From assembly GCA_017455205.1 (NCBI GenBank), contig JAFTBM010000021.1, positions 1 to 50,989 of the forward strand: DNA of 50,989 bases, written 5' to 3'. Shown here one piece after another: positions 13,858 through 50,989 of the stretch; within the stretch, counting starts at the first letter, position 1; the number at the start of each line of letters is the position of its first letter. Both the position numbers and the translations under genes were made by a program. The DNA comes from Bacteroidales bacterium (GTDB lineage Bacteria; Bacteroidota; Bacteroidia; Bacteroidales; P3). A model generated the notes under the pieces. That model saw only the letters and a program-made list of their open reading frames with translations, was not told the origin of the DNA and did not search any database.

Positions 13858-15588
13858 TTATTTGTTTAACACTCTTCCCAGAAACGTATCCGTGAACGCG
13901 TGCTGGTATCTCAATGTGAGCATCTGGTATTTTGGGAGACTTTCGAGGTATTCCAACTCGAAAACAAAGCGGGGCGCTTTCAGGTCTTTCTTGGTTTCGG
14001 TGTGTACCTCGGTTTTGTCTCCCAGCCGCAGTAGCTTTATTAAGTAGATGTCCCGAACCCCTTTCCCTTTGATGTAGGGCATAAAGTAATATAGTTTGTT
14101 GAGTGCGATAGTGGACGGGAACTTTCGAATCGAGTCCGTATAGTAGAGTTTGGTTGGTTCTTCTGTGAGAAAATATTTTTCATTGTCTTTCTTCACTATT
14201 CCCACAAGTAAACGTTTTGAGGGGTCTAGTTGGTATGTCTTCTTGGGTTTGTTGTAAACCAGCTCTTTTGTCTCAGTGTTGAACAAGTCCAATGTCAGTG
14301 CCGGACGCGGGTTACGTTGTTTATGGATAGGCTTGGTTGACACAGGTGCTTCGTCGTAGATAAACTGATAGAGACTACGTCCAATTTCTTGCACGATACC
14401 GCACACCAAAGCGTTACCCATTAGGAAAGCACGGCGCCCATCCGACACGTCAGGATGATACGTATGATTGTCGGGAAACATGTTCAGGCGTTCCATCTCG
14501 ATAGGAATCAGGCGGCGATAGCGACCAGATGGAGTCTGCACCACATGCTTGAATCGCGACGGGGCCGAGCCTCCTTCACCTGTAATCATAGTGCGAGATG
14601 GCTTGTCAAGGTAGTCGGGGAATGCCATTCCACCCTCAGAGAATACATATTCGAAGCCTCCCTTTGAAATACGGTTTATCTTTTTTGCGCCTTTCTCGTA
14701 TTGCCATTTGGGCAGTTCTTCTTCCGAGATGAAGAACTCTTCAGGAACAAAGTCCTCGTCGACAAGAATGTCGCCCAACATCTGGCGAGTGCCATCGTAG
14801 ACAGGTATGGCTTCAACCGAATACACATGTCGGTCAATCATGATGCCAGCATTCTCGAAAGGACTGTCTTTTTGTCCTTTGTTGAAATTTGCCGACACTT
14901 CTTGTATAGAGCCTTTGATATCGAATTCCGATTGTGTTCCTTCATCGGCACTGAATGGGAAAGCTTCGGCCATGACCCCCTCGAACTTCACCCAGTTTTC
15001 CATCGTTTCAATTTTGTTAGCGACTTCAGAGCCCTTTTGGTATCCTACAATATACGTTCTGCGTCTGCGCTGTGGCATTCCGTAGTCGGCAGCGTTGATG
15101 ATACGCCATTCGACAATATATCCGAGGTTGGACAGCGATGCCAAAATGATGGCGAAATCGCGTCCTCGCTGTGTAGCAGGGGAATTCAGCAGACGGTCTA
15201 CATTTTCGAAAAAGATATATCGCGGGCGCTTATCCACCTTTTCCTCAAGAATGCGATATATTTGCCACCAAAGCACACCTTTCTTGCCCTCGATTCCTCC
15301 CGAACGGCTCAATGTTGCCGCCACCGAGTAATCCTGGCAAGGGAAGCCTCCAACAAGTAGGTCGTGGTCGGGAATTTCTTCTGTCTTGACAAGGTTGATG
15401 TCTTTGTTTACATGCCCCTTATATCCGAATCTAGCTTTATATACAAGGGATGCGTCTTGATGTAATGTCGAAGGCTCCCACTGATTATTCCAGATGGTCT
15501 CGTATGCATCCGATGCACCTTCCAATCCGATGCGAAATCCTCCTACACCGGCAAATAGCTCCACTACCTTTATATGATGCTTAGGCAT
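13858..15588 (-). CDS. C5-cytosine DNA methyltransferase of a Sau3AI-type system
   Basis: Protects DNA by methylating cytosine. Of 576 residues, the first roughly 400 show the C5-MTase order: motif I ELFAGVGGFRIGLEG (10-24), motif IV GGFPCQDYSVA with catalytic C84, motif VI FENVDRLL, motif VIII YGMPQRRRRTYIVGY, and motifs IX-X near SRTMITGEGG and MGNALVCGIVQEIGR. The roughly 160-residue C-terminal part is an addition with no family I recognise. It overlaps the endonuclease gene by 8 bp, so the two are translationally coupled. Site is inferred as GATC from the partner endonuclease. Base composition is more A+T rich than the flanks. Confidence 0.92.
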   Translation of the reverse strand: MPKHHIKVVELFAGVGGFRIGLEGASDAYETIWNNQWEPSTLHQDASLVYKARFGYKGHVNKDINLVKTEEIPDHDLLVGGFPCQDYSVAATLSRSGGIEGKKGVLWWQIYRILEEKVDKRPRYIFFENVDRLLNSPATQRGRDFAIILASLSNLGYIVEWRIINAADYGMPQRRRRTYIVGYQKGSEVANKIETMENWVKFEGVMAEAFPFSADEGTQSEFDIKGSIQEVSANFNKGQKDSPFENAGIMIDRHVYSVEAIPVYDGTRQMLGDILVDEDFVPEEFFISEEELPKWQYEKGAKKINRISKGGFEYVFSEGGMAFPDYLDKPSRTMITGEGGSAPSRFKHVVQTPSGRYRRLIPIEMERLNMFPDNHTYHPDVSDGRRAFLMGNALVCGIVQEIGRSLYQFIYDEAPVSTKPIHKQRNPRPALTLDLFNTETKELVYNKPKKTYQLDPSKRLLVGIVKKDNEKYFLTEEPTKLYYTDSIRKFPSTIALNKLYYFMPYIKGKGVRDIYLIKLLRLGDKTEVHTETKKDLKAPRFVFELEYLESLPKYQMLTLRYQHAFTDTFLGRVLNK

Positions 15589-17011
15589 TCAACTTCTCCT
15601 TTCTTCTATTTTCTACGATTTCTCGCACATACTCATTATTAAACCAGTAACAGAACTTTTTGGCATCTTTACCATCTGGAGTTGGTGCAAGGTCGGTTGC
15701 CTTCAGAGCTTTGGGGCGAACATGGAATTTCTTCCTATCAGTACCTTTCCACCAGTATTCCTCTGAAATATGACCGACAAGAACATTAGTTCTGATATGA
15801 TCCCAATAAACTTCTGCCCAATCCAAGTCCTTTTGTGGCATTGTCCAGAAAAAAACATCATCCAGCAAATAATCCTCTTTTCCGGCTGTCTGCTCTCTGA
15901 ATACGACAAACATAAAACGACTGGAATATAATTCATACAATCGAGAGTCAGTCCACTCATCGCATTCTGCCACCTCTATGTAGTCTATATTCTCGAATGA
16001 CATCGCCTCCTTTATGATGCCACTGGCTTGCACGCGAATTGTTTTCATTGTAAGACCTGCTTTGAGAAATTCCTCAGAGCGGTTCACGTTGGCACACTTG
16101 GCAGAGGCTGCGATAGCATTGGCAATAAGTGCGAACTTGTTTTTTGGATTATTCTCGATATTGACATTCTTCCTCTTCGCAATCTTTTCAAAGGGCATGT
16201 TTAAGAACGGTTTAAACCGATTGAGCAGAATGTCGTCAAAAGAGTGATTCAGAAGAGCCTTGGTACTGACAAGCTCTGATTTAACTTCTGGTATGTTTGA
16301 GATTGCATTTTTACCACTCTTGACAACGTACTCCAACACAGTACGCATATACGCCATTTTGAGGCTGAATGCTCTACGTGGAGCGTTGATATCATTATTG
16401 GGCTGTTTCATCAGGCTTTCGCCTTTCTGTCCTTTTCGACATGCACCAAGATACATTGTATCGCCCTCGGATAACTCATGAGCCTTTCCCTGTTTTATCT
16501 TGTCAATGATGACTTCGTAATCATGCTTGATAATCAACAAATCCTTCTTTGGGAGTTTCCACAGGACGGAAAAGATGAACTCCAAATCGAGTTTATCGCA
16601 GTTATTTTTATGCAAGTAAAAGAGCAACAACATTAACTGGCACTTCAAATAGAAGTGCGAATGTTCGAAGTCTTCATCAACCACTTCGCAGTAATTAATC
16701 ATGTTGCACACAAGACGTTCCTTAATAAGGTAGTTGTCCTGTTTGCTCTTCTTTAAAGGAGTACATTTCAGTTCCATTCCAGCCTCGGAGAAATCAGCAC
16801 CGACATAATTGTTGGTTTCAAGCATAAAGAATATGTTCTCCACCATCTGTCCAAGGCTTCCTTTACCCTTCTTCGGCTCATATCCTTCCCTCACGAAGTC
16901 TCGTAGGGTTTTACCTAATATTTTTTTGCTGTATTCAAAGATACTTGTGGCATCTTTGATATTATAGGGCAATGAGGTTATTGTATTATGGTTAACTGCC
17001 ATATTGTTCAT
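15581..17011 (-). CDS. Sau3AI/MutH-type type II restriction endonuclease
   Basis: A 476-residue protein close in length to Sau3AI (489). Its N-terminal domain has the MutH-fold active site: VEN (E58), then ADFSEAGMELKCTPLKKSK with D73, E80 and K82, matching MutH E56, D70, E77 and K79 in spacing. Sau3AI carries a second, catalytically dead MutH-like domain that acts in DNA binding; the C-terminal half here (after about 220) would fill that role. Expected to cut GATC; the specificity is inference. An alternative start is the second Met at 17002. Promoter box at 17081-17088; endonuclease first, methyltransferase second. Confidence 0.88.
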   Translation of the reverse strand: MNNMAVNHNTITSLPYNIKDATSIFEYSKKILGKTLRDFVREGYEPKKGKGSLGQMVENIFFMLETNNYVGADFSEAGMELKCTPLKKSKQDNYLIKERLVCNMINYCEVVDEDFEHSHFYLKCQLMLLLFYLHKNNCDKLDLEFIFSVLWKLPKKDLLIIKHDYEVIIDKIKQGKAHELSEGDTMYLGACRKGQKGESLMKQPNNDINAPRRAFSLKMAYMRTVLEYVVKSGKNAISNIPEVKSELVSTKALLNHSFDDILLNRFKPFLNMPFEKIAKRKNVNIENNPKNKFALIANAIAASAKCANVNRSEEFLKAGLTMKTIRVQASGIIKEAMSFENIDYIEVAECDEWTDSRLYELYSSRFMFVVFREQTAGKEDYLLDDVFFWTMPQKDLDWAEVYWDHIRTNVLVGHISEEYWWKGTDRKKFHVRPKALKATDLAPTPDGKDAKKFCYWFNNEYVREIVENRRKEKLNA

Positions 17012-17080
17012 TTATTCTACTACGCGGGTTGCCCCTCCGTTTATTTGTGTCTACGATATTTATATATCTTTTTCAAACTG

Positions 17081-17088
17081 TAAAGATA
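17081..17088 (-). promoter_or_regulatory. Probable -7 box for the Sau3AI-type operon
   Basis: TATCTTTA on the minus strand, one base off TAnnTTTG, with TTAG (one off TTTG) 19 bases further upstream. It lies about 70 bp before the endonuclease ATG, between it and the truncated hsdS. Confidence 0.45.
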
Positions 17089-17113
17089 CGCAATTATTCT
17101 GAATTATCTAAAT

Positions 17114-17695
17114 TTATTTGCATTCAGGAGTTACTGGCCCGATAAATACCGATGGTGACACGCGGCGGTTGATGTTGCGGTGGCTTTTGTCGTTTTTTTT
17201 CTCGGCGGCAGCAATGCTGCCCTGCACCGCCGCGATGGCCTCATCCACCTTCGAGAGCAACGTAGCGATGGCGGTTTGAGCGGTTTTTGATTGAGGTATA
17301 TTTATTTTGATGCGACTAACTTTCGGTGCGGTAAGTTGAGGAACGCCGGTACTTTCTTTTGGAAAATGGACTTGTGAATTAAGATAATAAGTAACATATC
17401 TACAATCAATGTCTATTTTAGGTTGAAGAACAAGTAACCTAACTATGGCGTCAAAATCTTCATCACGATATTCTGCGTGACCAACATCACCTCTTCCTGT
17501 TATCGTTACAGCGTTGCCTTTAAAACGAGGTTTGGATGTATAGCCATATAATCCCTTATTTTCTAAAGAATTCGCAAATATTGGATACTTAAACTCTTCA
17601 GTTTGCATTGAAGAAAAAAACAAACCCTGCAAGTCGCCACCCGCCTTGACATCAAAAAGAGTCCCAACTATTTCTGTTTTCCAGCCTTCCATCAT
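17114..17695 (-). CDS. hsdS: Type I restriction specificity subunit, half-length / truncated HsdS
   Basis: The DNA-recognition subunit of a type I system. The 193 residues cover only one target-recognition domain (GWKTEIVGTLFDVKAGGDLQ; TITGRGDVGHAEYR; LLVLQPKIDIDCRYVTYYLN) and one conserved helix (AIATLLSKVDEAIAAVQGSI). A normal HsdS of about 400 residues has two TRDs. After AAEKK the family continuation is lost and the tail KSHRNINRRVSPSVFIGPVTPECK is unlike HsdS, which suggests a recombination or insertion junction. It follows the AlbA-type gene by 3 bp. Either a remnant or a half-S that could dimerise; truncation is favoured because hsdR is also missing. Confidence 0.8.
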   Translation of the reverse strand: MMEGWKTEIVGTLFDVKAGGDLQGLFFSSMQTEEFKYPIFANSLENKGLYGYTSKPRFKGNAVTITGRGDVGHAEYRDEDFDAIVRLLVLQPKIDIDCRYVTYYLNSQVHFPKESTGVPQLTAPKVSRIKINIPQSKTAQTAIATLLSKVDEAIAAVQGSIAAAEKKNDKSHRNINRRVSPSVFIGPVTPECK

Positions 17696-17698
17696 TGT

Positions 17699-19393
17699 CT
17701 ATTGTTCATTGTTCAGCCGATAGGTCCTGTTTTTGTTGGCACCACAGGCTATGATAAGGCCTGCTTTTGCCATAGAGTTGAGGTAAAAACGTGTCCTCGA
17801 CAAACTAATTTTTAGTGTTTTTGACAACTGAGATGTGGTGACATCCGTATTTAATGACAGATATTCCATTATTATCGCTTGTTTGTCACCCAATTTGTCG
17901 CTTGTTTTGAGATTTATCGCCTGTTTATCGCCCAATTTGTCGCCTGTTTCCTCAGCGGTCGGCTCTTCGTGTTTCTCTACTTCCCAATGGCCGCCCTTGC
18001 CAGGACCTACCCGGCGGATGATGCCCTTTTTACGAAGATTTGCAATCTGTTTTGTTATTGCTCTTCGGCTCATTCCCAATGCTCCAGCTATCTCTTGTGT
18101 GGTAATTTGGGAGTTGGCCGACATTAGAGAAATGATTTTCTGGGAACTTTTCTGGGAACTTTTCTGGGAACTTTTCGATCCCTCTTCTGGCCACTTCTGT
18201 CTATCGGTATGTTGAACTTCCGACAAACTTCCGACATTTAACGTGTCATCTCCTGTTTTTCCCATAACATTCTCCGTTTTTACTCCATCGTCCTGCTCGC
18301 CTTCCTCTGGTATCCAGTTATATGGGACAATCATTCGGATGTAATTGTCGCCAAACTCGAAATTGTCTCGTCCATAAGTGCGCATAATACGATTCATCCC
18401 AGAGCCGAGAGCCTCCACCATCTCCACATCACGGAACACCCGCATCAGTTCCCTGTTACGAGGCATGCTCACCCCGTTGAAGAAATCATCCTTTGTCAGT
18501 CCCAATGGTATTTTACCAATGGAGGTTATCTCCAATCGGTCGGAAAACAGTTCTATTTTGGAAGGGACACCGTAATAGTAATCGTTATGCACAACAGCAT
18601 TGATAACCGCCTCCCTCACGGCTATTTTGTCCCACTGAGGGGTGTCAATGCGCCGAGTAGAAGTAATCTTTGACGATACTTTGTTCTCCACATCGAGCTT
18701 GTCAAGCACTTTCTGTGTAGCAGTAATCAGACAGCAATATCCGTACTCATTGTTGGAAATCAGATCGTATCGGTCTGTTCCTGCATACCTGGCCAGTTTC
18801 ATTGAATTGCCGTTTTCATCGGCAAGCAGATAGGCCACATAGTTGTATTTTCCGTCGTCGGTCATCAAATCAAGCGACCGAATGAAATTGTCATTGAGTT
18901 GAAACCCTTTTTCGGTGTAATAGATTTTCAGTTGCGCAAATGTCAAATCCTGTCGCGGCGATACCACATTCTTCAGCGAGTTGTGTACTCTGCGGGCGTA
19001 AAGGTCTTCGATTTGTGCACTCGTCATGGGCTCTGCCGCTGTTCCCACTCGTATAAAACAGCCCTTTTCGGACAATCCATAACGGGTTTTGTAATAAGGT
19101 TTCTCACTTCCGCTCGAAATGAAAACCTTGATGACAGGTATATTGTCGATTTGTTCGACTGTCACATCAAACAGCCCCATCGGCGATGGAGAAACACCTG
19201 TTCTGATGCGGTCTTTGATTTTCAGCATATCGCCATCTATGTCATTTACCCCCACAGCCTTTCCACTATCATCGATACCAATATAAATAATACCACCCTC
19301 ACGGTAATTGAGGAAAGCCACCACTTCGCGTTCCAAATCGAGGTCGCGTGTCAGTTCGCGTTTGAATTCTATACGATTGGTCTCTTTCATCAT
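17699..19393 (-). CDS. AlbA_2/Schlafen-type ATP-binding winged-helix regulator in the type I locus
   Basis: A 564-residue protein of the AlbA_2 class (once called divergent AAA-4). N-terminal AlbA_2 domain (ETNRIEFKRELTRDLDLERE; LNYREGGIIYIGIDDSGKAV), a GHKL-like ATPase half (REAVINAVVHNDYYYGVPSK; EALGSGMNRIMRTYG), then winged-helix regions (TTQEIAGALGMSRRAITKQI; TTSQLSKTLKISLSRTRFYL). The linker is built of repeats: SSQK three times from a 12-bp DNA repeat, and two copies of DKLGDKQAI. Such proteins often stand between hsdM and hsdS in Bacteroidota type I loci; role there is unproven, likely regulatory or defensive. Four-base overlap with hsdM (ATGA). Confidence 0.85.
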   Translation of the reverse strand: MMKETNRIEFKRELTRDLDLEREVVAFLNYREGGIIYIGIDDSGKAVGVNDIDGDMLKIKDRIRTGVSPSPMGLFDVTVEQIDNIPVIKVFISSGSEKPYYKTRYGLSEKGCFIRVGTAAEPMTSAQIEDLYARRVHNSLKNVVSPRQDLTFAQLKIYYTEKGFQLNDNFIRSLDLMTDDGKYNYVAYLLADENGNSMKLARYAGTDRYDLISNNEYGYCCLITATQKVLDKLDVENKVSSKITSTRRIDTPQWDKIAVREAVINAVVHNDYYYGVPSKIELFSDRLEITSIGKIPLGLTKDDFFNGVSMPRNRELMRVFRDVEMVEALGSGMNRIMRTYGRDNFEFGDNYIRMIVPYNWIPEEGEQDDGVKTENVMGKTGDDTLNVGSLSEVQHTDRQKWPEEGSKSSQKSSQKSSQKIISLMSANSQITTQEIAGALGMSRRAITKQIANLRKKGIIRRVGPGKGGHWEVEKHEEPTAEETGDKLGDKQAINLKTSDKLGDKQAIIMEYLSLNTDVTTSQLSKTLKISLSRTRFYLNSMAKAGLIIACGANKNRTYRLNNEQ

Positions 19394-21435
19394 TGCAAAT
19401 TGTCAATTTTGTTCAGCCATTCACTCAACTCTTTCTCTGCCGCCGATTCCGCTTGCAATGCATTGCGGAAATCCGAAATGGCCTGCTTCAAATCGATTTG
19501 CTCCTCAGGCTCAAAGGTATCGACATAGCGTGGAATATTGAGGTTGAACTCGTTCTCCTCGATCTCGTCCATATCGGCGATGGAGAAATAGCGCTTGCGT
19601 AACTCCGGGTCGGCAAACATCTGGAGTAGTTCGTCCTCTACATTATCAATCGCCTGTGATTGTTTTGTCGCCTTGTCTTTGGCTGCGTTTATCTTGGCCG
19701 TTTTGTCTGCCAAGAGCTTGTCTAAAGCATTTTGAGCGGTCTCCAATGCCTTTAGTTCACTCTTGGTTGGAGCCTTCCCGTTCTTCTCTTTCTCCTGAAT
19801 AACTTGTTTGGCCTTGTTCAGCTTTTCTGTCTTGATGGCGATATCTTCCGCCGTATCCTTCTCTATCTCGGATATTTCGTAATCATAGTCAAGAAGTATC
19901 TGGCTATTCAGCTGCACCTTCCTGTCTGCAATCCAGGCCTTGGCTTTGTCAATATTTCCCCAGCTCTCCAATATGGTGGAGATACGGAGCACGTCATGAG
20001 GTTCCAACACACTCATATTGGCATCCTCGCGATACCAGCCTTTCTTGGCGGCATAGACCATTAGCACCTTGTTCTTGCGCTCGGCCAGTTTGTTCTTGTC
20101 GAAGAAGATAATAGCACCAGGAATGGTGGTGCCATAGAAGAGGTTGCCTGGCAGCACGACAATGGCATCAATGATGTTGATGTGCTTAGAGAAATCGATG
20201 CCCTGCAAAAAGCCCCGACGAATGAGGTATTCCACATCGGCCTTGCGGTTCTGTCCGTCCTCTTCTTCTGTCTTCTCCGGCTGTCCTCGGAAAAGGACAC
20301 CTTGCGGACATACCACTCCCGCTTTCCCCTTGTCGTCCAGAGAGGCAATGATGTGTTGCAAGAAAGCGAAGTCGCCATTGCTGTAGGGCGGAATGCCATA
20401 GACAAGACGGTTGTAAGGGTCTGAAAACTCCTTCTTGTATTCCAGTTGAGGCGCCCCATCCTTTTTTAGGACGGCCTTCCCCTTTTTGTCTTTCTTGGGT
20501 TCGCCATTCTGTGCCCAGTTCTCCATGGAGAATGGGAAATTGGCCATCACTTTGTCGAATGTCCTTAGCTCCAATGCATTCCCCTCTTCCTTGAACTTCG
20601 GGTCACGGATGGTGTCGCCTTGTTCAATGCGGGCATCCAGGCCATGGAGAATCATGTTGATGTTACTGATAGCCCATGTGTTCCATACCAGCTCCTGCCC
20701 GAACAAACGAATGCTTCTGGGGTCATTATATTGCATCCTCACATACTTCGCCGCATTGAGTAGGAAGCCACCCGAGCCGCATGTCGGGTCATAAACGGTT
20801 TCGCCTTCTGCCGGCTTCAGATAGCGGACAATGATATCAACAACTTCCTGCGGTGTATAGAACTGTCCCGCCATTGTGCCACCTTTGTTCTCGTCAGCAA
20901 AGCGTTTTATCAAGTATTCGTATGCATCGCCTAACACATCGACAGTCACGTTCTTGTTGCTGAGGTCGACAGCCCCCAAATAGCTGATCAGGTTGGAAAG
21001 CACCTCTGGGTCGAGTTTCTTACCACCAGAGCCATCAGGCGCAGGCTCGTTCCAACGGACGGTATTGATGATGCCTTTCAGAATATATTTACCGTTCTTA
21101 TCAACATTTTGGTCTGCGATGGCACCCACCGCCTTGTCAAATGCCTCATTTTTCTTGTCAATAGGTGCTTTTCTTACATCATCCCAAAAACAGCCGTCGG
21201 GGATGACAAAATCGTGATTCTTCTTGTTGATTGTATCCTGCTCCTTTGCTGTTGGCTCACGACAATTATCACTTCTGAACTGCTCTATCCCATGCTCACT
21301 TTCCCACTTATAATTGTCCGATAGGCGTTTAAAAAACAAGAGAGAGAGGATGTAAGACTTATAATCCTCCACCTTGTCGCGGAGAATATCAGCCATCCCG
21401 AAAAGCAGGCTGCCTAATGCTTGTTTTGTTATCAT
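19390..21435 (-). CDS. hsdM: Type I restriction-modification DNA methyltransferase subunit HsdM
   Basis: N6-adenine methyltransferase subunit. 681 residues: HsdM N-terminal helical domain (LRDKVEDYKSYILSLLFFKR), then the catalytic domain with GQFYTPQEVVD (190-200), SAM motif DPTCGSGGFLLNAAK (216-230), GQELVWNTWAISNINM, and motif IV at 298-303 reading ANFPFS where NPPF/Y is the common form. A long charged coiled region (about 525-630: KLNKAKQVIQEKEKNGKAP, ALETAQNALDKLLADKTAKI) precedes the C-terminus. First gene of the type I remnant; hsdR does not occur on either side in this window. Confidence 0.93.
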   Translation of the reverse strand: MITKQALGSLLFGMADILRDKVEDYKSYILSLLFFKRLSDNYKWESEHGIEQFRSDNCREPTAKEQDTINKKNHDFVIPDGCFWDDVRKAPIDKKNEAFDKAVGAIADQNVDKNGKYILKGIINTVRWNEPAPDGSGGKKLDPEVLSNLISYLGAVDLSNKNVTVDVLGDAYEYLIKRFADENKGGTMAGQFYTPQEVVDIIVRYLKPAEGETVYDPTCGSGGFLLNAAKYVRMQYNDPRSIRLFGQELVWNTWAISNINMILHGLDARIEQGDTIRDPKFKEEGNALELRTFDKVMANFPFSMENWAQNGEPKKDKKGKAVLKKDGAPQLEYKKEFSDPYNRLVYGIPPYSNGDFAFLQHIIASLDDKGKAGVVCPQGVLFRGQPEKTEEEDGQNRKADVEYLIRRGFLQGIDFSKHINIIDAIVVLPGNLFYGTTIPGAIIFFDKNKLAERKNKVLMVYAAKKGWYREDANMSVLEPHDVLRISTILESWGNIDKAKAWIADRKVQLNSQILLDYDYEISEIEKDTAEDIAIKTEKLNKAKQVIQEKEKNGKAPTKSELKALETAQNALDKLLADKTAKINAAKDKATKQSQAIDNVEDELLQMFADPELRKRYFSIADMDEIEENEFNLNIPRYVDTFEPEEQIDLKQAISDFRNALQAESAAEKELSEWLNKIDNLQ

Positions 21436-45510: not shown

Positions 45511-45667
45511 CCCAATTCCCAATTCTCAATTCTCAATTTTCCATTGCCACTTGGTCCGTGTCATCTCCGTGTCAACTCCGTGTCAGGTCCGTGTCACCTC
45601 CGAGTGGAGTCGGACTTAACACGAACCATGCACGGACCATGCACGGCTCAAACACGTGCCAAGTCCC
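45511..45667. repeat. Composite minisatellite, copy 5 (inverted)
   Basis: On the minus strand: GTCCGTG-type units, CGGAGG, three to four TGACACGG 11-mers, CCAAGT, then ATTGARA heptamers. Same order as copy 4. Inverted relative to the other four, and so with the ATTGARA end toward ftcD, which is read leftward. 45291-45510 and 45668-45850 contain no gene; 45747-45776 has a CCCACGC/GCGTGGG inverted repeat. Confidence 0.85.
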
Positions 45668-45850: not shown

Positions 45851-45871
45851 GGCGAAGATATAATCTTCGCC
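45851..45871. other. Perfect hairpin next to the array's terminal repeat
   Basis: GGCGAAGAT-ATA-ATCTTCGCC, arms of 9 bp. A sister hairpin, GGCGAAGTT-TTT-AACTTCGCC, fills much of the first interval (45923-45943) inside the array. They flank the degenerate repeat. May end the array transcript. Confidence 0.7.
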
Positions 45872-45876
45872 TCCTT

Positions 45877-46992
45877 GCCTATAACCTTATTTTGATGGAT
45901 GATGGCTGGCCAGCCACTGGGAGGCGAAGTTTTTAACTTCGCCATAATGTCTTTATTCTTGTTTTGATGGATGATGGCTGGCCAGTTTATAATCGTAGTC
46001 ATTCTCCTCGCTGGTTGCGGGTCTTTATCCTTGTTTTGATGGATGATGGCTGGCCAGTTTATAATCGTAGTCATTCTCCTCGCTGGTTGCGGGTCTTTAT
46101 CCTTGTTTTGATGGATGATGGCTGGCCAGCTCGCCTGGGGCACTATCAAATAATCGCACTGAAGAAGTCTTTATCCTTGTTTTGATGGATGATGGCTGGC
46201 CAGCCCCTTGAGGGCGAATATAGCCTGACCGCAGAGATGTCTTTATCCTTGTTTTGATGGATGATGGCTGGCCAGTTTTTTTTAACTTTAATTTTATTTC
46301 ACCATGGGTCTTTATCCTTGTTTTGATGGATGATGGCTGGCCAGTCCCTTATCCTAAAGGCTAAGCCCGAATTGGGTAAGTCTTTATCCTTGTTTTGATG
46401 GATGATGGCTGGCCAGAGAGTTCGGGCTCTCCACGGGGGACATCGAAGAGGTGTCTTTATCCTTGTTTTGATGGATGATGGCTGGCCAGAATCGCTCGCA
46501 GTGGTATAAGCAGAACGATGGGGTCTTTATCCTTGTTTTGATGGATGATGGCTGGCCAGCCAGTTCTTGGCCGAGAAGAATCTCACCCCGACAGGGGGTC
46601 TTTATCCTTGTTTTGATGGATGATGGCTGGCCAGTATTATGAACCTCGGCCAGTTCCTGTCCGAAAAGAGTCTTTATCCTTGTTTTGATGGATGATGGCT
46701 GGCCAGCGTTGTGCCTGGCAACAAAAACAACGGGACCTCTAGTCTTTATCCTTGTTTTGATGGATGATGGCTGGCCAGTCCAGTTATGTAGAGGATGGAG
46801 ATCCGATGCTGCTGTCTTTATCCTTGTTTTGATGGATGATGGCTGGCCAGTAAAATTATCGCACTGAAGAAGTGCGATATGGGTCTTTATCCTTGTTTTG
46901 ATGGATGATGGCTGGCCAGGCCTTCAAGGCGGTTTCTGAAGCGGGGCTTGTATGCGTCTTTATCCTTGTTTTGATGGATGATGGCTGGCCAG
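45877..46992 (-). CRISPR. CRISPR array, 16 repeats and 15 spacers
   Basis: The 37-bp repeat (plus strand) begins GTCTTTATCC, has TTGTTTTGATGGATGATGG in the middle and ends CTGGCCAG, an 8-bp palindrome. Repeats start at 45877 (degenerate, 5 mismatches), 45949 (1 mismatch), 46021, 46093, 46167, 46239, 46308, 46380, 46453, 46523, 46598, 46670, 46742, 46814, 46883 and 46956 (14 exact). Spacers are 32-38 nt, mostly 35. The decayed repeat marks the left as the old end, and the leader is at the right, so the array is read leftward, with the cas genes. Spacers 1 and 2 (45986, 46058) are identical. In crRNA sense the repeat ends GGATAAAGAC, comparable to type III-like 3' handles. Confidence 0.98.
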
Positions 46993-47119
46993 GGCAATTT
47001 TCGCATTTCCCACTTATTTAACCTCTTTGAGGTGGATTTATTGTATTTTGGAGCATTTTTTGTAAAAAAAATGTACCTAAAGGGGGATCTCAATATGTCA
47101 AAGAACGAGTGGTGCGGGG
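46993..47119 (-). promoter_or_regulatory. CRISPR leader
   Basis: 127 bp A+T-rich spacer between the youngest repeat and cas2. On the minus strand it holds TTCTTTGACATATTGAGATC, with TTTG at 47102-47099 and a TACATTTT box at 47075-47068 (23-bp spacing, loose promoter match). A palindrome ACCTCTTTGAGGT at 47021-47033 lies 28 bp from the first repeat and is a candidate site for the Cas1-Cas2 or a host factor. Confidence 0.7.
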
Positions 47120-47593
47120 TCAGAAGAAGAGGGTGTTGTGGGTTTTGAGGATGAGGTCGAGGTTGATGTTTTTGCCTATTATTTTCATGCTGTTGAGGTA
47201 GTCGGTGGATATGGGGACGATGAGTATGCTGTCCTGGTTGTCGTAGGCAGCCTGGACTTCGGCGAGGTCGGTACGCATCTGGTTGTAGACGGCTGGTGGG
47301 AGGTCGGCTAAAAAGATGGATTTTTGCACCCGATGGCAGCCTTTTTTTTCGAGGTATTTGACGATGAGGCGTCGGACGCGGTTGTCTTCGATGTCGTACA
47401 TGACGAAGAATATCATATCTGTGGTTTTTCGGCTGCGTTGGGTGGTGAGGTTGAGTATTTGGGCTATTCTTTCGTTGAGTGAGGGAATGGAGTCAAGGTT
47501 AGCTTGCGTAGAACGGCGGTCGATAAGGATGGTGGTTTCGCGCAGGCGTTGGAGGGATTGGGCAAGGTTGAAGGTTTTCTTTTTGCGGGGCAT
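47120..47593 (-). CDS. cas2: CRISPR-associated Cas2 with N-terminal extension
   Basis: Spacer-integration partner of Cas1. 157 residues: the Cas2 core starts at residue 60 (MIFFVMYDIEDNRVRRLIVK, conserved Asp67 in YDI, then YLEKKGCHRVQKSIFLADLP). The first 59 residues are extra and basic with predicted helices (MPRKKKTFNLAQSLQRLRET; SLNERIAQILNLTTQRSRK). The extension appears real: it begins 17 bp after the preceding gene and fills the interval in frame. A start at 47416 would give a plain 98-residue Cas2. Ends next to the leader. Confidence 0.92.
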   Translation of the reverse strand: MPRKKKTFNLAQSLQRLRETTILIDRRSTQANLDSIPSLNERIAQILNLTTQRSRKTTDMIFFVMYDIEDNRVRRLIVKYLEKKGCHRVQKSIFLADLPPAVYNQMRTDLAEVQAAYDNQDSILIVPISTDYLNSMKIIGKNINLDLILKTHNTLFF

Positions 47594-47610
47594 GGCGGGG
47601 GAAATGGGGG

Positions 47611-48609
47611 TTAGGTGTGGGTGGCAATGAAAGATTGGATGAGGTCGGCCATGAGTTGGTTAGCTTCGGGGTCGGTGCCTGCTTTGGGGGAGATGACTAC
47701 GGAGAAGCCGCGTTTGCCGTAGAAGAGGTTGGTTTCGGCGTGCTTGCCGGCGAGGATGGTTTTGATCTTTTTGCCGTATTGTATGTTTGAGATTTCTTGG
47801 ACGAGGGTGCCTGTGGCTTCGATGTAGGGTTTGAGTTGACCGATGATGTCGTTGAGTTGTTCGGGGACGTAGGCTTCTTTTTTTGCACGCTGTGCGGCTT
47901 GGGTGTTGAGAGCGAGGATTTGTTTGATACGGGAAAGGCTGTCGTCGGAGACGGGTGAGGTTGGTGGCGGTGGTATGGATGGGGTAGGTTGGGTAGGTTG
48001 TGAGAAGATGGAGAGGGTGTTTTCGGTGTCTATGAAGGCGGATATGTCGATGGGGATGGGGCGTGGGTTGTAGTGCGCTTGTGGGTCGCTGCTGAGGAAG
48101 CATGCGCGGGCGACGTCGCTGGTGTGAGTGTCGGCCACTTGCTCAAGTTGATAGGTAGCAGCGAATTGGGTGAGAAAGGCTTTGTAGAAGAGGCTGAAGA
48201 GGCCTTTATCGGAGCAGGGCGAGGCGAGGCGCATGAGGATTTTGAGGCCGTCGCCGCTTGGGGAGAGGAAGAGAAGTTCGACGCGGGGGTCAGCGGCGAG
48301 GCGTGTGCGAAGGTCGTCGAGGGGGATGTTTTTATCGGATAGGTGGTCGAGGTCGAGAATGAAGCGAGTGGTGGATGCGAAGTTTTCGCTGCGGCGGAAA
48401 GGTGGGTTGAAGTGAGCACAGACGATGAAGGGAAGTCGGCGTTTCAGCTGGGTGTATTGCTGAGGCGAGATTTGGCGCACGATGCGCAGCTGACGGATGA
48501 GGGCGTCGACTTCGGGACGGGGTGAGAGGAGGATGCGGTGGAAGTCTGCAACGGGTATTTTTTGCAGTCTTTCTTCTGCGGAGGTGATGTTTTGTCCGTA
48601 GGATAGCAT
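47611..48609 (-). CDS. CRISPR-associated primase-polymerase-like protein (BT4734/VirE-N family)
   Basis: 332 residues between cas2 (17 bp) and cas1 (6 bp). The N-terminal half fits the BT4734-like archaeo-eukaryotic primase fold (PF08800): STTRFILDLDHLSDKN with D86-x-D88 (metal motif I), LFLSPSGDGLKILMR (S116, S118, K123; motif II-like), DVARACFLSSD (165-175; motif III-like). Such proteins next to cas1-cas2 are called CAPPs and are thought to act in spacer capture, as shown for Marinitoga; that function here is inferred. A Pro/Thr-rich linker (about 205-222: SQPTQPTPSIPPPPTSPVS) leads to a helical C-terminal part of unknown role. Confidence 0.85.
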   Translation of the reverse strand: MLSYGQNITSAEERLQKIPVADFHRILLSPRPEVDALIRQLRIVRQISPQQYTQLKRRLPFIVCAHFNPPFRRSENFASTTRFILDLDHLSDKNIPLDDLRTRLAADPRVELLFLSPSGDGLKILMRLASPCSDKGLFSLFYKAFLTQFAATYQLEQVADTHTSDVARACFLSSDPQAHYNPRPIPIDISAFIDTENTLSIFSQPTQPTPSIPPPPTSPVSDDSLSRIKQILALNTQAAQRAKKEAYVPEQLNDIIGQLKPYIEATGTLVQEISNIQYGKKIKTILAGKHAETNLFYGKRGFSVVISPKAGTDPEANQLMADLIQSFIATHT

Positions 48610-48615
48610 GGCTGT

Positions 48616-49593
48616 TCAGAGGGTTTTGAAGAGGGATGCCAGTTTTTGTGCGTAGAGGGTGAGTTGGGTGGTGCGGGAGCGGCTGACGCCGTGCTGGTCA
48701 ACGATTTCTTCCATATAGTCGTTGAGGGATTGGATGACCACACGCCGCCCGAGGGGTTCGAGCCAGCAGGAACCATCGCTGCGCAGGGAGTAGTATTCTT
48801 CGCTGACGGCGTTCTGCTGGAGGAGATTGAAGACTACGAAGTCTACCCAGATGCGATATTGCTCAATGACGTCGAAGACAAGGACTGGGCGATTGTAGTC
48901 ATCGCGGTGCATAACGCCGATGTAGGGGTCAATGCCAGCTTTGATTAGCGAGCCTTCGATTTTGCCGTAGAGGATGCCGTAGCCATAGTTGAGCATGGCG
49001 TTGGCCACATCGGTGGCAGGGTGCTGGCTGCGGGTAGTAAAACGGTATTTTTCTGGGAGGGAGAGGTTGATTTGCTCGAAATAGATTTTGGAAGCCACAC
49101 CCTCCCAACCGCGCAAGGTGGTGGTGACATCGGAGATGACTTCGCCGGTGGCGAGGGTGATTTTGTGTCGGTAGTCTTCAAGGCGGCGGAGCGCGGTTTG
49201 GAGGCGGTTTTGGGTGAAGGTGTCGTCGGCAGCGGTGGCGAGGAGGAGGGCTTGTTGGTTATCTATTTTGCGGACTAAGATGTCCTTTATCCATTCTACC
49301 GCTCGGTGTCCCATAGCGAAGTTGAGTTGTCCCTTGCGGATGGTGGAGATGGATCCATACTTGGGGCTCCATACACGCCCGAAGACTGTGCCGTCCTTGC
49401 CGACGAATAGGATTTCTATCTCTCGTTCGATGGCGAGCATCACAGCATCGCTGGTGATTTGTGCCCCGCGGCTCACTTGGATGCTTATGATGCCTTCGGC
49501 TGGGATTTTTTGCCGTCCCTCGCTGTTGCTGACCACGAAGCTTTCTTGGTCGCGGTGAAGTGATACGCCGTAGGAATTGAGCACCAGTTCCAT
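48616..49593 (-). CDS. cas1: CRISPR-associated endonuclease Cas1
   Basis: Integrase that inserts new spacers. 325 residues: N-terminal beta domain (MELVLNSYGVSLHRDQESFV; GAQITSDAVMLAIEREIEIL), then the helical catalytic domain with E164 (RGWEGVASKIYFEQI), H229 (GVMHRDDYNRP) and E244 after D241 (VFDVIEQYR), the metal-binding triad. Shape fits Cas1 of type III-like systems, sometimes fused to reverse transcriptase; no such fusion is present. Order cas1, primase-like, cas2, leader, array on one strand. Confidence 0.95.
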   Translation of the reverse strand: MELVLNSYGVSLHRDQESFVVSNSEGRQKIPAEGIISIQVSRGAQITSDAVMLAIEREIEILFVGKDGTVFGRVWSPKYGSISTIRKGQLNFAMGHRAVEWIKDILVRKIDNQQALLLATAADDTFTQNRLQTALRRLEDYRHKITLATGEVISDVTTTLRGWEGVASKIYFEQINLSLPEKYRFTTRSQHPATDVANAMLNYGYGILYGKIEGSLIKAGIDPYIGVMHRDDYNRPVLVFDVIEQYRIWVDFVVFNLLQQNAVSEEYYSLRSDGSCWLEPLGRRVVIQSLNDYMEEIVDQHGVSRSRTTQLTLYAQKLASLFKTL

Positions 49594-49607: not shown

Positions 49608-50989
49608 TTATTCCAGATACAATCGGTCGTCGACCATGTGCAGCGTCTGTTTAGCCCGGGTGATGGCGGTGTAGAGCCACCGGTAGACCTGCTTGGTGGG
49701 GTTGAGTCCTATGTTGCGCATCACGTGCAGGTAGACCTCGTCCCACTCGCCTCCCTGTGCCTTGTGGCAGGTGATGGCATAGCCGTACATGCAGCGCAGC
49801 GCATTGAGGTAGGGATCCTTCTGCAGTGCCTCGTCGAACTGCGGGTTGCCGGGCTTGGGCTTGATACCTTGCTTGTTCATCCGACAGCAGAACTCTATGA
49901 ACAGCTCCGACTGCTGGTTCATTGTAAGGTTGAGCACGTTGGCATTCAGAGTATCCAACAATAGCAGCGACGAGAACTCCCTGTCGCTCACACATTCTTT
50001 TACCTTGACCTTTACAAACGAGAGCATAGCTCGCTGCTTCACCAATGGCGACACTTCCATCACTTCCACCAAGTCGCCGTTCACCAATCCCGAGGGGCCA
50101 TTATTTTGGATGACCATCATCAGGTCGCCCTTCATCGGCAAATTGCCTCCGAGCCCCAGCATTCGTCTCACTTTGGCCGAAAGCTCTGTAGCTTGCTTAT
50201 TTGTCTGGCACACGAAAGTGCTTTTGTTGTAGCCGTTGGCTTTAATCTGCCGCACGTAGCAGCCTACCATATCTTCCAAATTGCTGTGCAGGGCGACGTT
50301 GGGCGACCGACGGAACGGCAGCTTCGTCCAGCATCGCATCCCGCCGTAGGCAGTCTCTGCGTCGGGTGCGTTGGCTATCTTCTTACGGATCTCTTTCGAC
50401 AGTCGTATGATGTCATTGCTACCTCGCTGCCGCACAATCTCGGTTAGCTGCTCCGAGTGTGCTGCGGGTTTGAAGGACATCTCCTCCATGGCTGGCGATA
50501 CGATATCGCCCACTGGTGGCAGCTGGCATGGGTCGCCCACGAAGATGAATTTGCTGCCTGGCAGCTGGTCGTATTGCATCAGCTCGTCGAGCAGTTTCCC
50601 CGACCCGAAGTAGGCCTGGTTGCTCGGCTGCCCTTGCGTGTTGCCTATCATCGAGGACTCGTCCACGATATACACTGTGGGGATGGCTCCTCTGGTGAGA
50701 TCCAAGGGGTCGAATGAGAAATTTAGGCATAGTTGCCCCGAGGCGTGGGCGCTCTCCAGTTCTTCTTTCTTCAGTTCGCGGTTGAAACCGGCGTACCTGT
50801 ATATTAGGCTGTGAATCGTGCGTCCGCCTTCGCCTTCAAAGCGGTTCTCCGCCGCCATGTCGCTCAACACCTTGGCTGCACGTCCAGTCGGAGCCAGCAA
50901 TTTGTACTCTCGTTTCTGCTCCACCAGGTGCTTCACCAGGAAGTGCATCAACGTTGTCTTTCCTGTGCCGGCATAGCCTTTCAAGATAA
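49608..50989 (-). CDS. RecD-like SF1 helicase, 5' end outside the window
   Basis: At least 460 residues, frame open to the right edge, so the N-terminus is not seen. Walker A LKGYAGTGKTTLMHFLVKHL, LLAPTGRAAKVLSDMA, Walker B VYIVDESSMIG, motif III FVGDPCQLPPVGD, and C-terminal UvrD_C_2-type AITCHKAQGGEWDEVYLHVM with LYTAITRAKQTLHMV. Family: RecD2/TraA-like 5'-3' helicases. Only 14 bp before cas1, so cotranscription is likely; a helicase of this kind is also a common Bacteroidales core gene, so linkage to CRISPR is inference. Confidence 0.9.
   Translation of the reverse strand, partial: ILKGYAGTGKTTLMHFLVKHLVEQKREYKLLAPTGRAAKVLSDMAAENRFEGEGGRTIHSLIYRYAGFNRELKKEELESAHASGQLCLNFSFDPLDLTRGAIPTVYIVDESSMIGNTQGQPSNQAYFGSGKLLDELMQYDQLPGSKFIFVGDPCQLPPVGDIVSPAMEEMSFKPAAHSEQLTEIVRQRGSNDIIRLSKEIRKKIANAPDAETAYGGMRCWTKLPFRRSPNVALHSNLEDMVGCYVRQIKANGYNKSTFVCQTNKQATELSAKVRRMLGLGGNLPMKGDLMMVIQNNGPSGLVNGDLVEVMEVSPLVKQRAMLSFVKVKVKECVSDREFSSLLLLDTLNANVLNLTMNQQSELFIEFCCRMNKQGIKPKPGNPQFDEALQKDPYLNALRCMYGYAITCHKAQGGEWDEVYLHVMRNIGLNPTKQVYRWLYTAITRAKQTLHMVDDRLYLE

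What the first reader, a model, noticed from the sequence alone, without database searches (positions are those of the whole stretch)
45877..49593. Effector-less CRISPR adaptation module with a primase-polymerase
Array, leader, cas2, a primase-polymerase-like protein (D86/D88 and K123 motifs) and cas1 form a compact operon, while no Cas effector gene occurs in the window. CAPP proteins are known next to Cas1-Cas2 in a few lineages; here the protein carries a Pro/Thr linker plus an unassigned C-terminal half, and Cas2 is extended. Either the effector lies elsewhere (type III is plausible from the repeat 3' end) or this is a stand-alone capture device. This is the best candidate in the window for an under-described system.
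Basis: partly seen in the sequence, partly recalled or inferred. Interest (0 to 1): 0.85.

Follow-up and report, generated by a model that had tools for sequence, protein, structure and literature searches.

The report
CRISPR memory module with primase-polymerase
The stretch holds a bacterial CRISPR memory-writing module (repeat array, Cas2, a primase-polymerase, Cas1 and a helicase) of an already described family, and it looks effector-less probably because the assembled sequence stops where relatives keep the effector genes.

Summary
A 16-repeat array, a 127-nt leader, an extended cas2, a 332-aa primase-polymerase and cas1 lie on the minus strand at 45877-49593. A fifth gene, a RecD-like helicase, is cut by the contig end at 50989. 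The 332-aa protein is not under-described: over nearly its full length it matches the curated family "CRISPR-associated primase-polymerase type B" (NF040562, E=1.5e-114), i.e. CAPP_B, a member of which was assayed as a DNA primase-polymerase in print (Zabrady 2021). "Effector-less" is not shown. Of 22 relatives with RecD just upstream of cas1 and at least 3 kb beyond it, 20 carry type III effector-cluster genes there (one of them a remnant). This contig ends inside RecD. No RAMP or Csm1 gene was found in the rest of a 93%-complete draft, so true loss is possible but less likely than an assembly gap. What is new is modest: the C-terminal half is probably a TBP-like domain of TOTE type, and spacers of CAPP_B arrays are about 3-fold enriched in 7-bp hairpins (seen again in further loci) and strongly antisense to coding strands. 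Both spacer traits have precedents in type III systems, and the hairpin excess is not clearly specific to CAPP.

The parts
45877..46992 (-). CRISPR array, 16 repeats of 37 nt (crRNA sense CTGGCCAGCCATCATCCATCAAAACAAGGATAAAGAC) and 15 spacers; leader-distal end at 45877
   Evidence: only array with this repeat in the genome (15 copies at up to 3 mismatches, all here)
46993..47119 (-). leader, 127 nt between cas2 stop and first repeat
   Evidence: sequence, extracted
47120..47593 (-). cas2, 157 aa, with ~60-aa N-terminal extension and C-terminal TLFF
47611..48609 (-). CAPP_B, CRISPR-associated primase-polymerase type B, 332 aa
   Evidence: NF040562 E=1.5e-114, 382.7 bits, cut-off 200; PF08800; D86/D88/K123 invariant
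47941..48609 (-). catalytic Prim-Pol (BT4734/VirE_N-like) half of CAPP_B, aa ~1-223, including the Pro/Thr linker aa ~204-222
   Evidence: PF08800 match aa 55-180; linker region variable in relatives
47614..47940 (-). C-terminal half of CAPP_B, aa ~224-332, probable TBP-like domain
   Evidence: PF22721 TBP-TOTE in 16 of 23 aligned members at E<=1, best 5.6e-5; the window's own copy gives no hit, but fits the family profile built from relatives and itself (E=4e-40)
48616..49593 (-). cas1, 325 aa; the only Cas1 match in the genome
49608..50987 (-). RecD-like SF1 helicase, 459 aa read, N-terminus (~31 aa against L029) cut by contig end
   Evidence: PADLOC PDC-M16A E=3.5e-105; TIGR01448 E=2.6e-28, below its cut-off; 49% identity to the helicase of L029
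45914..45948 (.). oldest spacer, perfect 9-bp hairpin GGCGAAGTT/AACTTCGCC; a related hairpin lies just outside the array at 45852-45872
46851..46882 (.). spacer with perfect 9-bp hairpin; overlaps in sequence the spacer at 46130-46166 (same orientation)

Best explanation
It is the adaptation end of a type III CRISPR-Cas locus of the CAPP_B kind. Cas1-Cas2 integrate new spacers at the leader end of the array (45.9-47.0 kb). CAPP_B, a DNA primase-polymerase with a probable TBP-like nucleic-acid-binding tail, makes single-stranded invader fragments double-stranded and/or fills the gaps left by integration. The RecD-like helicase, whose counterpart binds Cas1 in the characterised relative, probably feeds it DNA. 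The transcribed spacers would serve a Cas10-containing effector whose genes, in relatives with this order, lie upstream of the RecD gene, i.e. beyond this contig's end. Shown here: gene content, order, family membership, catalytic residues, repeat type. Shown in print for a relative (DbCAPP; sections and passages read): DNA-dependent priming and polymerisation, and binding of Cas1 to CAPP and to RecD. Inferred: the in vivo role, and that the effector exists but is not in the assembly.
For: NF040562, residues 2-328, 1.5e-114. DbCAPP's mutated catalytic residues carry the same numbers, D86 and D88. 58 loci of the family found, all with Bacteroidota names; order effector-CARF/csx-RecD-cas1-CAPP-cas2-array common; 36 of 41 loci with at least 6 kb upstream of cas1 hold an effector-cluster gene in the stretch (34 of 41 if clusters 13, 14, 17 and 20, which no call named, are left out); 20 of 22 with RecD within 2.5 kb upstream of cas1 and at least 3 kb beyond (19 of 22 by the stricter count; one of them, L051, a remnant), 22 of 22 with an effector or CARF/csx-like gene. 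The window repeat ends in CAAGGATAAAGAC where most of the family's end in AAGGATTAAGAC. 43 of 50 genomes holding a CAPP_B locus have RAMP genes. A Runella plasmid and a Persicobacter plasmid carry CAPP_B near Cmr/RAMP genes in public annotation.
Against: The genome itself has no PF03787 RAMP and no Csm1, although it is 93% complete. Cmr2 was not searched for by its own model. The contig end shares no useful overlap with another contig. The test for a neighbour gene (PF09652) was uninformative because it also missed the control genome G039. No spacer matched a phage or plasmid record. A signature expected if CAPP's first nucleotide (G) stayed at a spacer end was not seen. None of 36 same-genus genomes has a CAPP_B above the cut-off, so the locus has no close relative to compare with.
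Confidence: 0.75

Rival explanations
1. The species has truly lost its effector: the array, cas1, cas2 and CAPP_B remain as a relic or as an adaptation module without interference.
For: No RAMP and no Csm1 in the 2.17-Mb draft. Loss or breakage happens in the family: in L051 apparently only the C-terminal part of one effector-cluster protein is left within the 10 kb held, beside ORFs unlike cas genes, and its genome has no RAMP match; L073 has CARF/csx-like, RecD, cas1, CAPP and cas2 but its genome has no RAMP match.
Against: Of the 7 RAMP-less genomes among 50, five (L033, L060, L074, L087, L089) have a contig cut near the operon, as here. Fourteen identical repeats, intact ORFs and invariant catalytic residues argue against long decay.
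Confidence: 0.18
2. The module serves effectors of another CRISPR type in trans (class 2 or type I) or works as a stand-alone capture device.
For: Sharing of adaptation machinery and arrays between systems is reported in print (PMC8482600, passages). Type I and class 2 effectors were not searched for in this genome.
Against: There is only one Cas1 match and one array with this repeat in the genome. The repeat is of the type linked to type III in relatives. CAPP_B arrays are strongly antisense to coding strands, as RNA targeting needs (355 to 71); the window alone is 5 to 1, not significant.
Confidence: 0.05

Closest known systems
CAPP_B class, DbCAPP of a Dysgonamonadaceae bacterium (Zabrady et al. 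2021, PMC8211822; abstract, sections 6, 14 and 15 and passages read)
   Same: VirE_N/BT4734-like Prim-Pol domain of ~220 aa plus a smaller C-terminus; D86/D88; operon with RecD-like helicase, Cas1, Cas2 and array; Bacteroidota
   Different: Here the effector side is not assembled; the linker is Pro/Thr-rich. The DbCAPP sequence itself was not aligned here.
NCBIfam NF040562 PrimPol_Db
   Same: Equivalog match over residues 2-328, 382.7 bits against a cut-off of 200
   Different: Nothing found
CAPP_A class (Marinitoga MpCAPP; sections and passages of PMC8211822)
   Same: Prim-Pol linked to Cas1-Cas2 of type III
   Different: MpCAPP has an N-terminal TPR domain, self-associates and binds Argonaute; not seen here
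TOTE conflict systems (TPR, OB, TBP, Effector; passages of PMC12458937)
   Same: Probable TBP-like C-terminal domain in CAPP_B; 15 of 58 CAPP_B loci also hold a TPR gene of one family, whole or in part; of 7 such proteins scanned 2 pass the cut-off of S1CSD-TOTE-2 and 1 hits S1CSD-TOTE-1 below cut-off
   Different: No TPR gene of that family in this window; the core here is Cas1-Cas2

Membership tests
CAPP_B | full-length match to the family model above its cut-off | tested here: met
   NF040562, aa 2-328, 382.7 bits vs 200
CAPP_B | Prim-Pol catalytic residues D86, D88 (and K123) | tested here: met
CAPP_B | operon with cas1, cas2 and a CRISPR array | tested here: met
CAPP_B | RecD-like helicase neighbour | tested here: met
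   49608-50987, 5' end cut
CAPP_B | DNA primase and polymerase activity | not testable with these tools
   needs purified protein; structure prediction was not accepted
complete type III CRISPR-Cas system | cas10 and RAMP genes in the genome | tested here: not met
   no PF03787, no TIGR02578 in a 93%-complete draft; Cmr2 model not run; not filed as a complete type III system
complete type III CRISPR-Cas system | repeat of the type that goes with type III loci of this family | tested here: met
TOTE conflict system | TBP-like domain | tested here: inconclusive
   relatives match PF22721 (best E 5.6e-5), the window's own copy does not
TOTE conflict system | TPR-OB gene | tested here: not met
   no match of the TPR-gene profile among the window ORFs of 100 aa or more; the rest of the genome was not searched

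The most novel reading that the evidence does not exclude
CAPP_B adaptation modules are a merger of CRISPR adaptation with TOTE-type conflict machinery: the primase carries a TBP-like domain, a TPR-S1/CSD protein is a recurrent partner, and together they draw prespacers from hairpin-forming single-stranded DNA, leaving hairpin-rich, strand-biased arrays.
Probability: 0.2. Interest if true: 0.6.

Novelty: new member of a known kind. Interest (0 to 1): 0.35.

Why it matters
As a locus it is one more CAPP_B module, so it matters little by itself. The comparison it prompted gives two testable leads on an open question, namely what the primase-polymerase does in spacer capture: a likely TBP-like nucleic-acid-binding domain in its unassigned half, and a hairpin excess in CAPP_B arrays. 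The hairpin excess parallels the hairpin preference reported for Streptococcus thermophilus type III-A adaptation (review PMC9048733, section 11 read).

Tried and rejected
Stand-alone capture device: rejected as first choice because the contig ends inside RecD and relatives carry effector genes beyond it. CAPP priming start kept at the spacer boundary: DbCAPP starts primers with G, but G is depleted at the first spacer base (0.130 against 0.184 inside) and C is not raised at the last (0.185 against 0.206), 1,135 spacers; not supported. Fold-back synthesis as the source of hairpins: the stems do not sit preferentially at one place in the spacer (24 of 49 centred at 0.4-0.6 of the length, null 45%) and overlapping spacers in L040 and L076 show both flanks of a hairpin, so those hairpins are probably native to the targets. 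Targets of the array: none found in phages, plasmids, or viral contigs for 6 cores of 21 bases taken from 6 of the 14 distinct spacers. Solved-structure search by sequence: nothing for the protein or its profile; for the C-terminal profile only hits at E 0.18 or worse. Linking the contig end to another contig: only an 18-base match at E 0.49. PF09652 as a neighbour marker failed its own control. Leaders of 28 loci printed: no shared motif seen by eye. A search for papers with TOTE, CRISPR and primase together found none (open-licence library only).

Limits of the hairpin result. The idea came from this window, so it is post hoc for the first set; the window was left out of both tested sets. 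The second set used the same threshold (stem of at least 7) and shares no spacer with the first. Against specificity to CAPP: at stems of at least 8, type II arrays are also enriched (5 of 536, 0.8 expected), while CAPP_B has 9 of 859 (2.9 expected) and non-CAPP type I/III 3 of 627 (1.8 expected); type II spacers are shorter (mean 30 nt). Target make-up is a live confounder: in 40 kb of Bacteroides phage crAss001, 144 of 4,441 36-mers (3.24%) hold such stems, in 40 kb of phage B124-14 42 of 4,441 (0.95%); in flanking DNA of the loci 20 of 765 non-coding against 82 of 7,163 coding 36-mers. The groups called type I-like and type III-like were set by me from Cas1 score, repeat look or a Csm1 neighbour; some of their arrays have repeats of the CAPP_B type though no CAPP was found on the stretch (L122, L130, L201, L211). 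Dropped before the 859-spacer count: arrays whose repeat was not 36-38 nt (L046, L062, L065, L066, L085, the third array of L042, the second of L081). The earlier, less strict count was 39 of 895, 13.3 expected, window included.
Full report
What is there. On the minus strand the window reads RecD-like helicase (50987-49608, 5' end cut), cas1 (49593-48616), a 332-aa primase-polymerase (48609-47611), cas2 (47593-47120), a 127-nt leader and a CRISPR array (46992-45877) of 16 repeats and 15 spacers. Gaps between the genes are 6 to 17 nt, so one operon is likely. The window is the whole contig C67 of a 2,167,671-base, 69-contig, 93%-complete draft; the genome holds one Cas1 match and one array with this repeat. 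GC of the module's genes is near that of the contig (0.50-0.56 against 0.55). None of 36 same-genus genomes has a CAPP_B above the cut-off; 4 of 61 genomes searched with it do, the window's included, 20 of 393 in the order and 3 of 395 in a sample of the phylum.

Identity. The primase-polymerase matches NCBIfam NF040562, CRISPR-associated primase-polymerase type B, from residue 2 to 328 with E=1.5e-114 (382.7 bits, cut-off 200), and Pfam PF08800 over residues 55-180. This is class CAPP_B of Zabrady et al. 2021 (PMC8211822; abstract, sections 6, 14, 15 and passages read). That paper describes CAPP_B as almost confined to Bacteroidetes and mostly in type III operons. Its member DbCAPP has a VirE_N-like domain (aa ~1-220) and a smaller, diverse C-terminus, acts as a DNA-dependent DNA polymerase and primase, and has a D86A+D88A catalytic mutant; DbCas1 bound DbCAPP and a RecD-like helicase in yeast two-hybrid. 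The window protein has D86 and D88, invariant with K123 in 42 of 42 aligned sequences. Two public plasmid records carry this annotation for relatives.

Surroundings in relatives. One scan of genome contigs gave 58 loci (157 stretches matched a pattern, 58 confirmed). ORFs were clustered and laid out in order. A common order is effector genes (csm1-5 or a cmr-like set), CARF/csx-like genes, RecD, cas1, CAPP, cas2, array. Names for the clusters come from one representative each: clusters 7, 8, 9, 10 = Csm4, Csm3, Csm2, Csm1; 4 and 11 = RAMP-like, below equivalog cut-offs; 1 = TIGR02221/DxTHG; 14 and 6 gave no family; 13, 17 and 20 were not scanned and are placed by context, as is the CARF-like name of cluster 6. 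36 of 41 loci with at least 6 kb upstream of cas1 hold an effector-cluster gene (34 of 41 without clusters 13, 14, 17, 20). Where RecD lies within 2.5 kb upstream of cas1 and at least 3 kb lies beyond it, 20 of 22 have an effector-cluster gene there (19 of 22 by the stricter count; L051 among them keeps a remnant) and 22 of 22 an effector or CARF/csx-like gene. The window's contig ends inside RecD, at that border.

Is the effector missing? In the whole draft no RAMP (PF03787) and no Csm1 (TIGR02578; G039 and G053 in the same call are over the cut-off) was found; Cmr2, type I and class 2 effectors were not searched for. In 50 of the 58 genomes that hold a CAPP_B locus, 43 have RAMPs. Of the 7 without, L060, L074, L087 and L089 have contigs cut at or near the operon, and L033 ends about 1 kb beyond its array (L032, L037 and L038 carry the effector on that side). 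L051 keeps only part of one effector-cluster protein in the stretch held, and L073 has CARF/csx-like genes but no RAMP. So an assembly gap is the commoner reason, but real loss does seem to occur in the family.

Repeat and array. The family's repeats are mostly 37 nt and mostly end in AAGGATTAAGAC; the window's ends in AAGGATAAAGAC. Fourteen window repeats are identical over the 33 bases searched; the one at 45949 has one change and the leader-distal one is decayed, which places the old end at 45877 and the new end beside cas2.

Cas2. The ~60-residue N-terminal extension is typical of these loci: the 52 Cas2 ORFs of the cluster (window included) are 155-205 aa from the first start codon, and most end in FF. 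An interface role for CAPP or RecD is only a guess.

The C-terminal half. Residues ~224-332 are conserved in relatives; the paper calls this part diverse. In Pfam they match PF22721, the TBP-like domain of TOTE conflict systems: 7 of 10 members at first (bits up to 18.0, cut-off 27), 16 of 23 at E<=1 with a best E of 5.6e-5, 18 of 42 full-length proteins at E<=0.1, best 1.5e-4. Rivals in the same calls: RnlA_toxin_N in 5 of 23 (best 0.019) and 2 of 42 (best 2.8e-4), and PF21940 in 1 of 42 at 1.5e-4; TBP-TOTE is the only one that recurs widely. The window's own half gives no hit, though it fits the family profile, of which it is a member (E=4e-40). The same domain appears weakly twice in a long RecD of L083 (whole-protein E=2.3e-5, single stretches 0.018 and 0.3). 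A TPR gene of one family lies, whole or in part, in 15 of 58 CAPP_B loci. Of 7 such proteins scanned, 2 pass the cut-off of S1CSD-TOTE-2 and 1 hits S1CSD-TOTE-1 below cut-off. In L060 the CAPP is fused to a TPR stretch. TOTE stands for TPR, OB, TBP, Effector (PMC12458937, passages). Two structure-prediction requests were not accepted, so the fold is untested.

Spacers. Oriented by the repeat, 355 CAPP_B spacers look antisense and 71 sense to a coding frame (1,123 spacers, window excluded; p=1.7e-46; known coding 36-mers score 434 to 44). The window gives 5 to 1 (p=0.22). Type I-like controls give 98 to 91 (498 spacers) and type III-like arrays without CAPP on the stretch 41 to 27 (147 spacers, p=0.11). 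A coding-strand bias of about 2 to 1 in type III is in print (PMC8482600, passages), so the direction is expected; the size is high, though measured by another method.

Hairpins. Two of 14 distinct window spacers hold 9-bp perfect hairpins. Without the window, 33 of 859 CAPP_B spacers from 34 loci hold a stem of at least 7 bp, 11.5 (sd 3.3) expected from dinucleotide shuffles, while non-CAPP type I/III arrays have 7 of 627 (6.6 expected) and type II arrays 9 of 536 (4.9 expected); permutation over loci against all these controls gives p=0.0014. At stems of at least 8 the figures are 9 of 859 (2.9), 3 of 627 (1.8) and 5 of 536 (0.8): type II arrays are enriched too, which speaks against a trait of CAPP alone. 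Nine further loci sharing no spacer with the first set gave 14 of 262 at 7 bp (4.7-5.1 expected; 1 of 600 shuffles reached 14). Together 47 of 1,121 against 2 of 215 in type III-like arrays without CAPP (p=0.016) and 17 of 1,426 in all non-CAPP arrays, many of them with shorter spacers (p=2e-6). In flanking DNA of the same loci 102 of 7,928 36-mers hold such stems (90.7 expected). Of 41 overlapping spacer pairs found within arrays, 39 are in the same orientation and 9 involve a hairpin spacer (pairs were tried in the same orientation first). Target make-up is a confounder: one Bacteroides phage stretch reaches 3.24%, another 0.95%. Hairpin preference in type III-A adaptation of S. thermophilus is in print (PMC9048733, section 11); CAPP is not mentioned in that review.

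Verdict. A sound observation of a known kind of module, read as more exotic than it is because the contig ends in the operon. The TBP-like tail and the hairpin-rich arrays are the parts worth a follow-up.

Noticed in passing
window 13858-21435 (minus strand): A run of ORFs that by eye resembles a restriction-modification or defence island: a methyltransferase-like ORF (13858-15588), an HsdS-like ORF (17114-17695), a Schlafen/ATP-binding-like ORF (17699-19393) and an HsdM-like ORF (19390-21435). Names are recalled from the look of the sequences (ORFs); no family search was run.
   Followed up: no
window 45852-45872: A hairpin GGCGAAGATATAATCTTCGCC just outside the array closely resembles the hairpin in the oldest spacer (45914-45948); it may be a further, decayed spacer.
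   Followed up: partly
window 45555-45598: Four tandem copies of an 11-nt unit TCCGTGTCANN between a gene that looks like ftcD (name recalled) and the array.
   Followed up: no
L060:489-2288: CAPP_B fused in one frame to a TPR stretch (599 aa), linking it to the TPR partner seen as a separate gene in other loci.
   Followed up: partly
L051:1-5800: CAPP_B locus in which apparently only the C-terminal part of one type III effector-cluster protein remains in the stretch held, beside ORFs unlike cas genes.
   Followed up: partly
L037 and L040 arrays: Groups of spacers that are variants of one another, mostly in the same orientation, as if from a repetitive or paralogous target gene.
   Followed up: no
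NZ_CP031032.1 and NZ_AP025298.1 (L223, L224): CAPP_B type III loci on plasmids of Runella and Persicobacter, with Cmr/RAMP genes close by.
   Followed up: no
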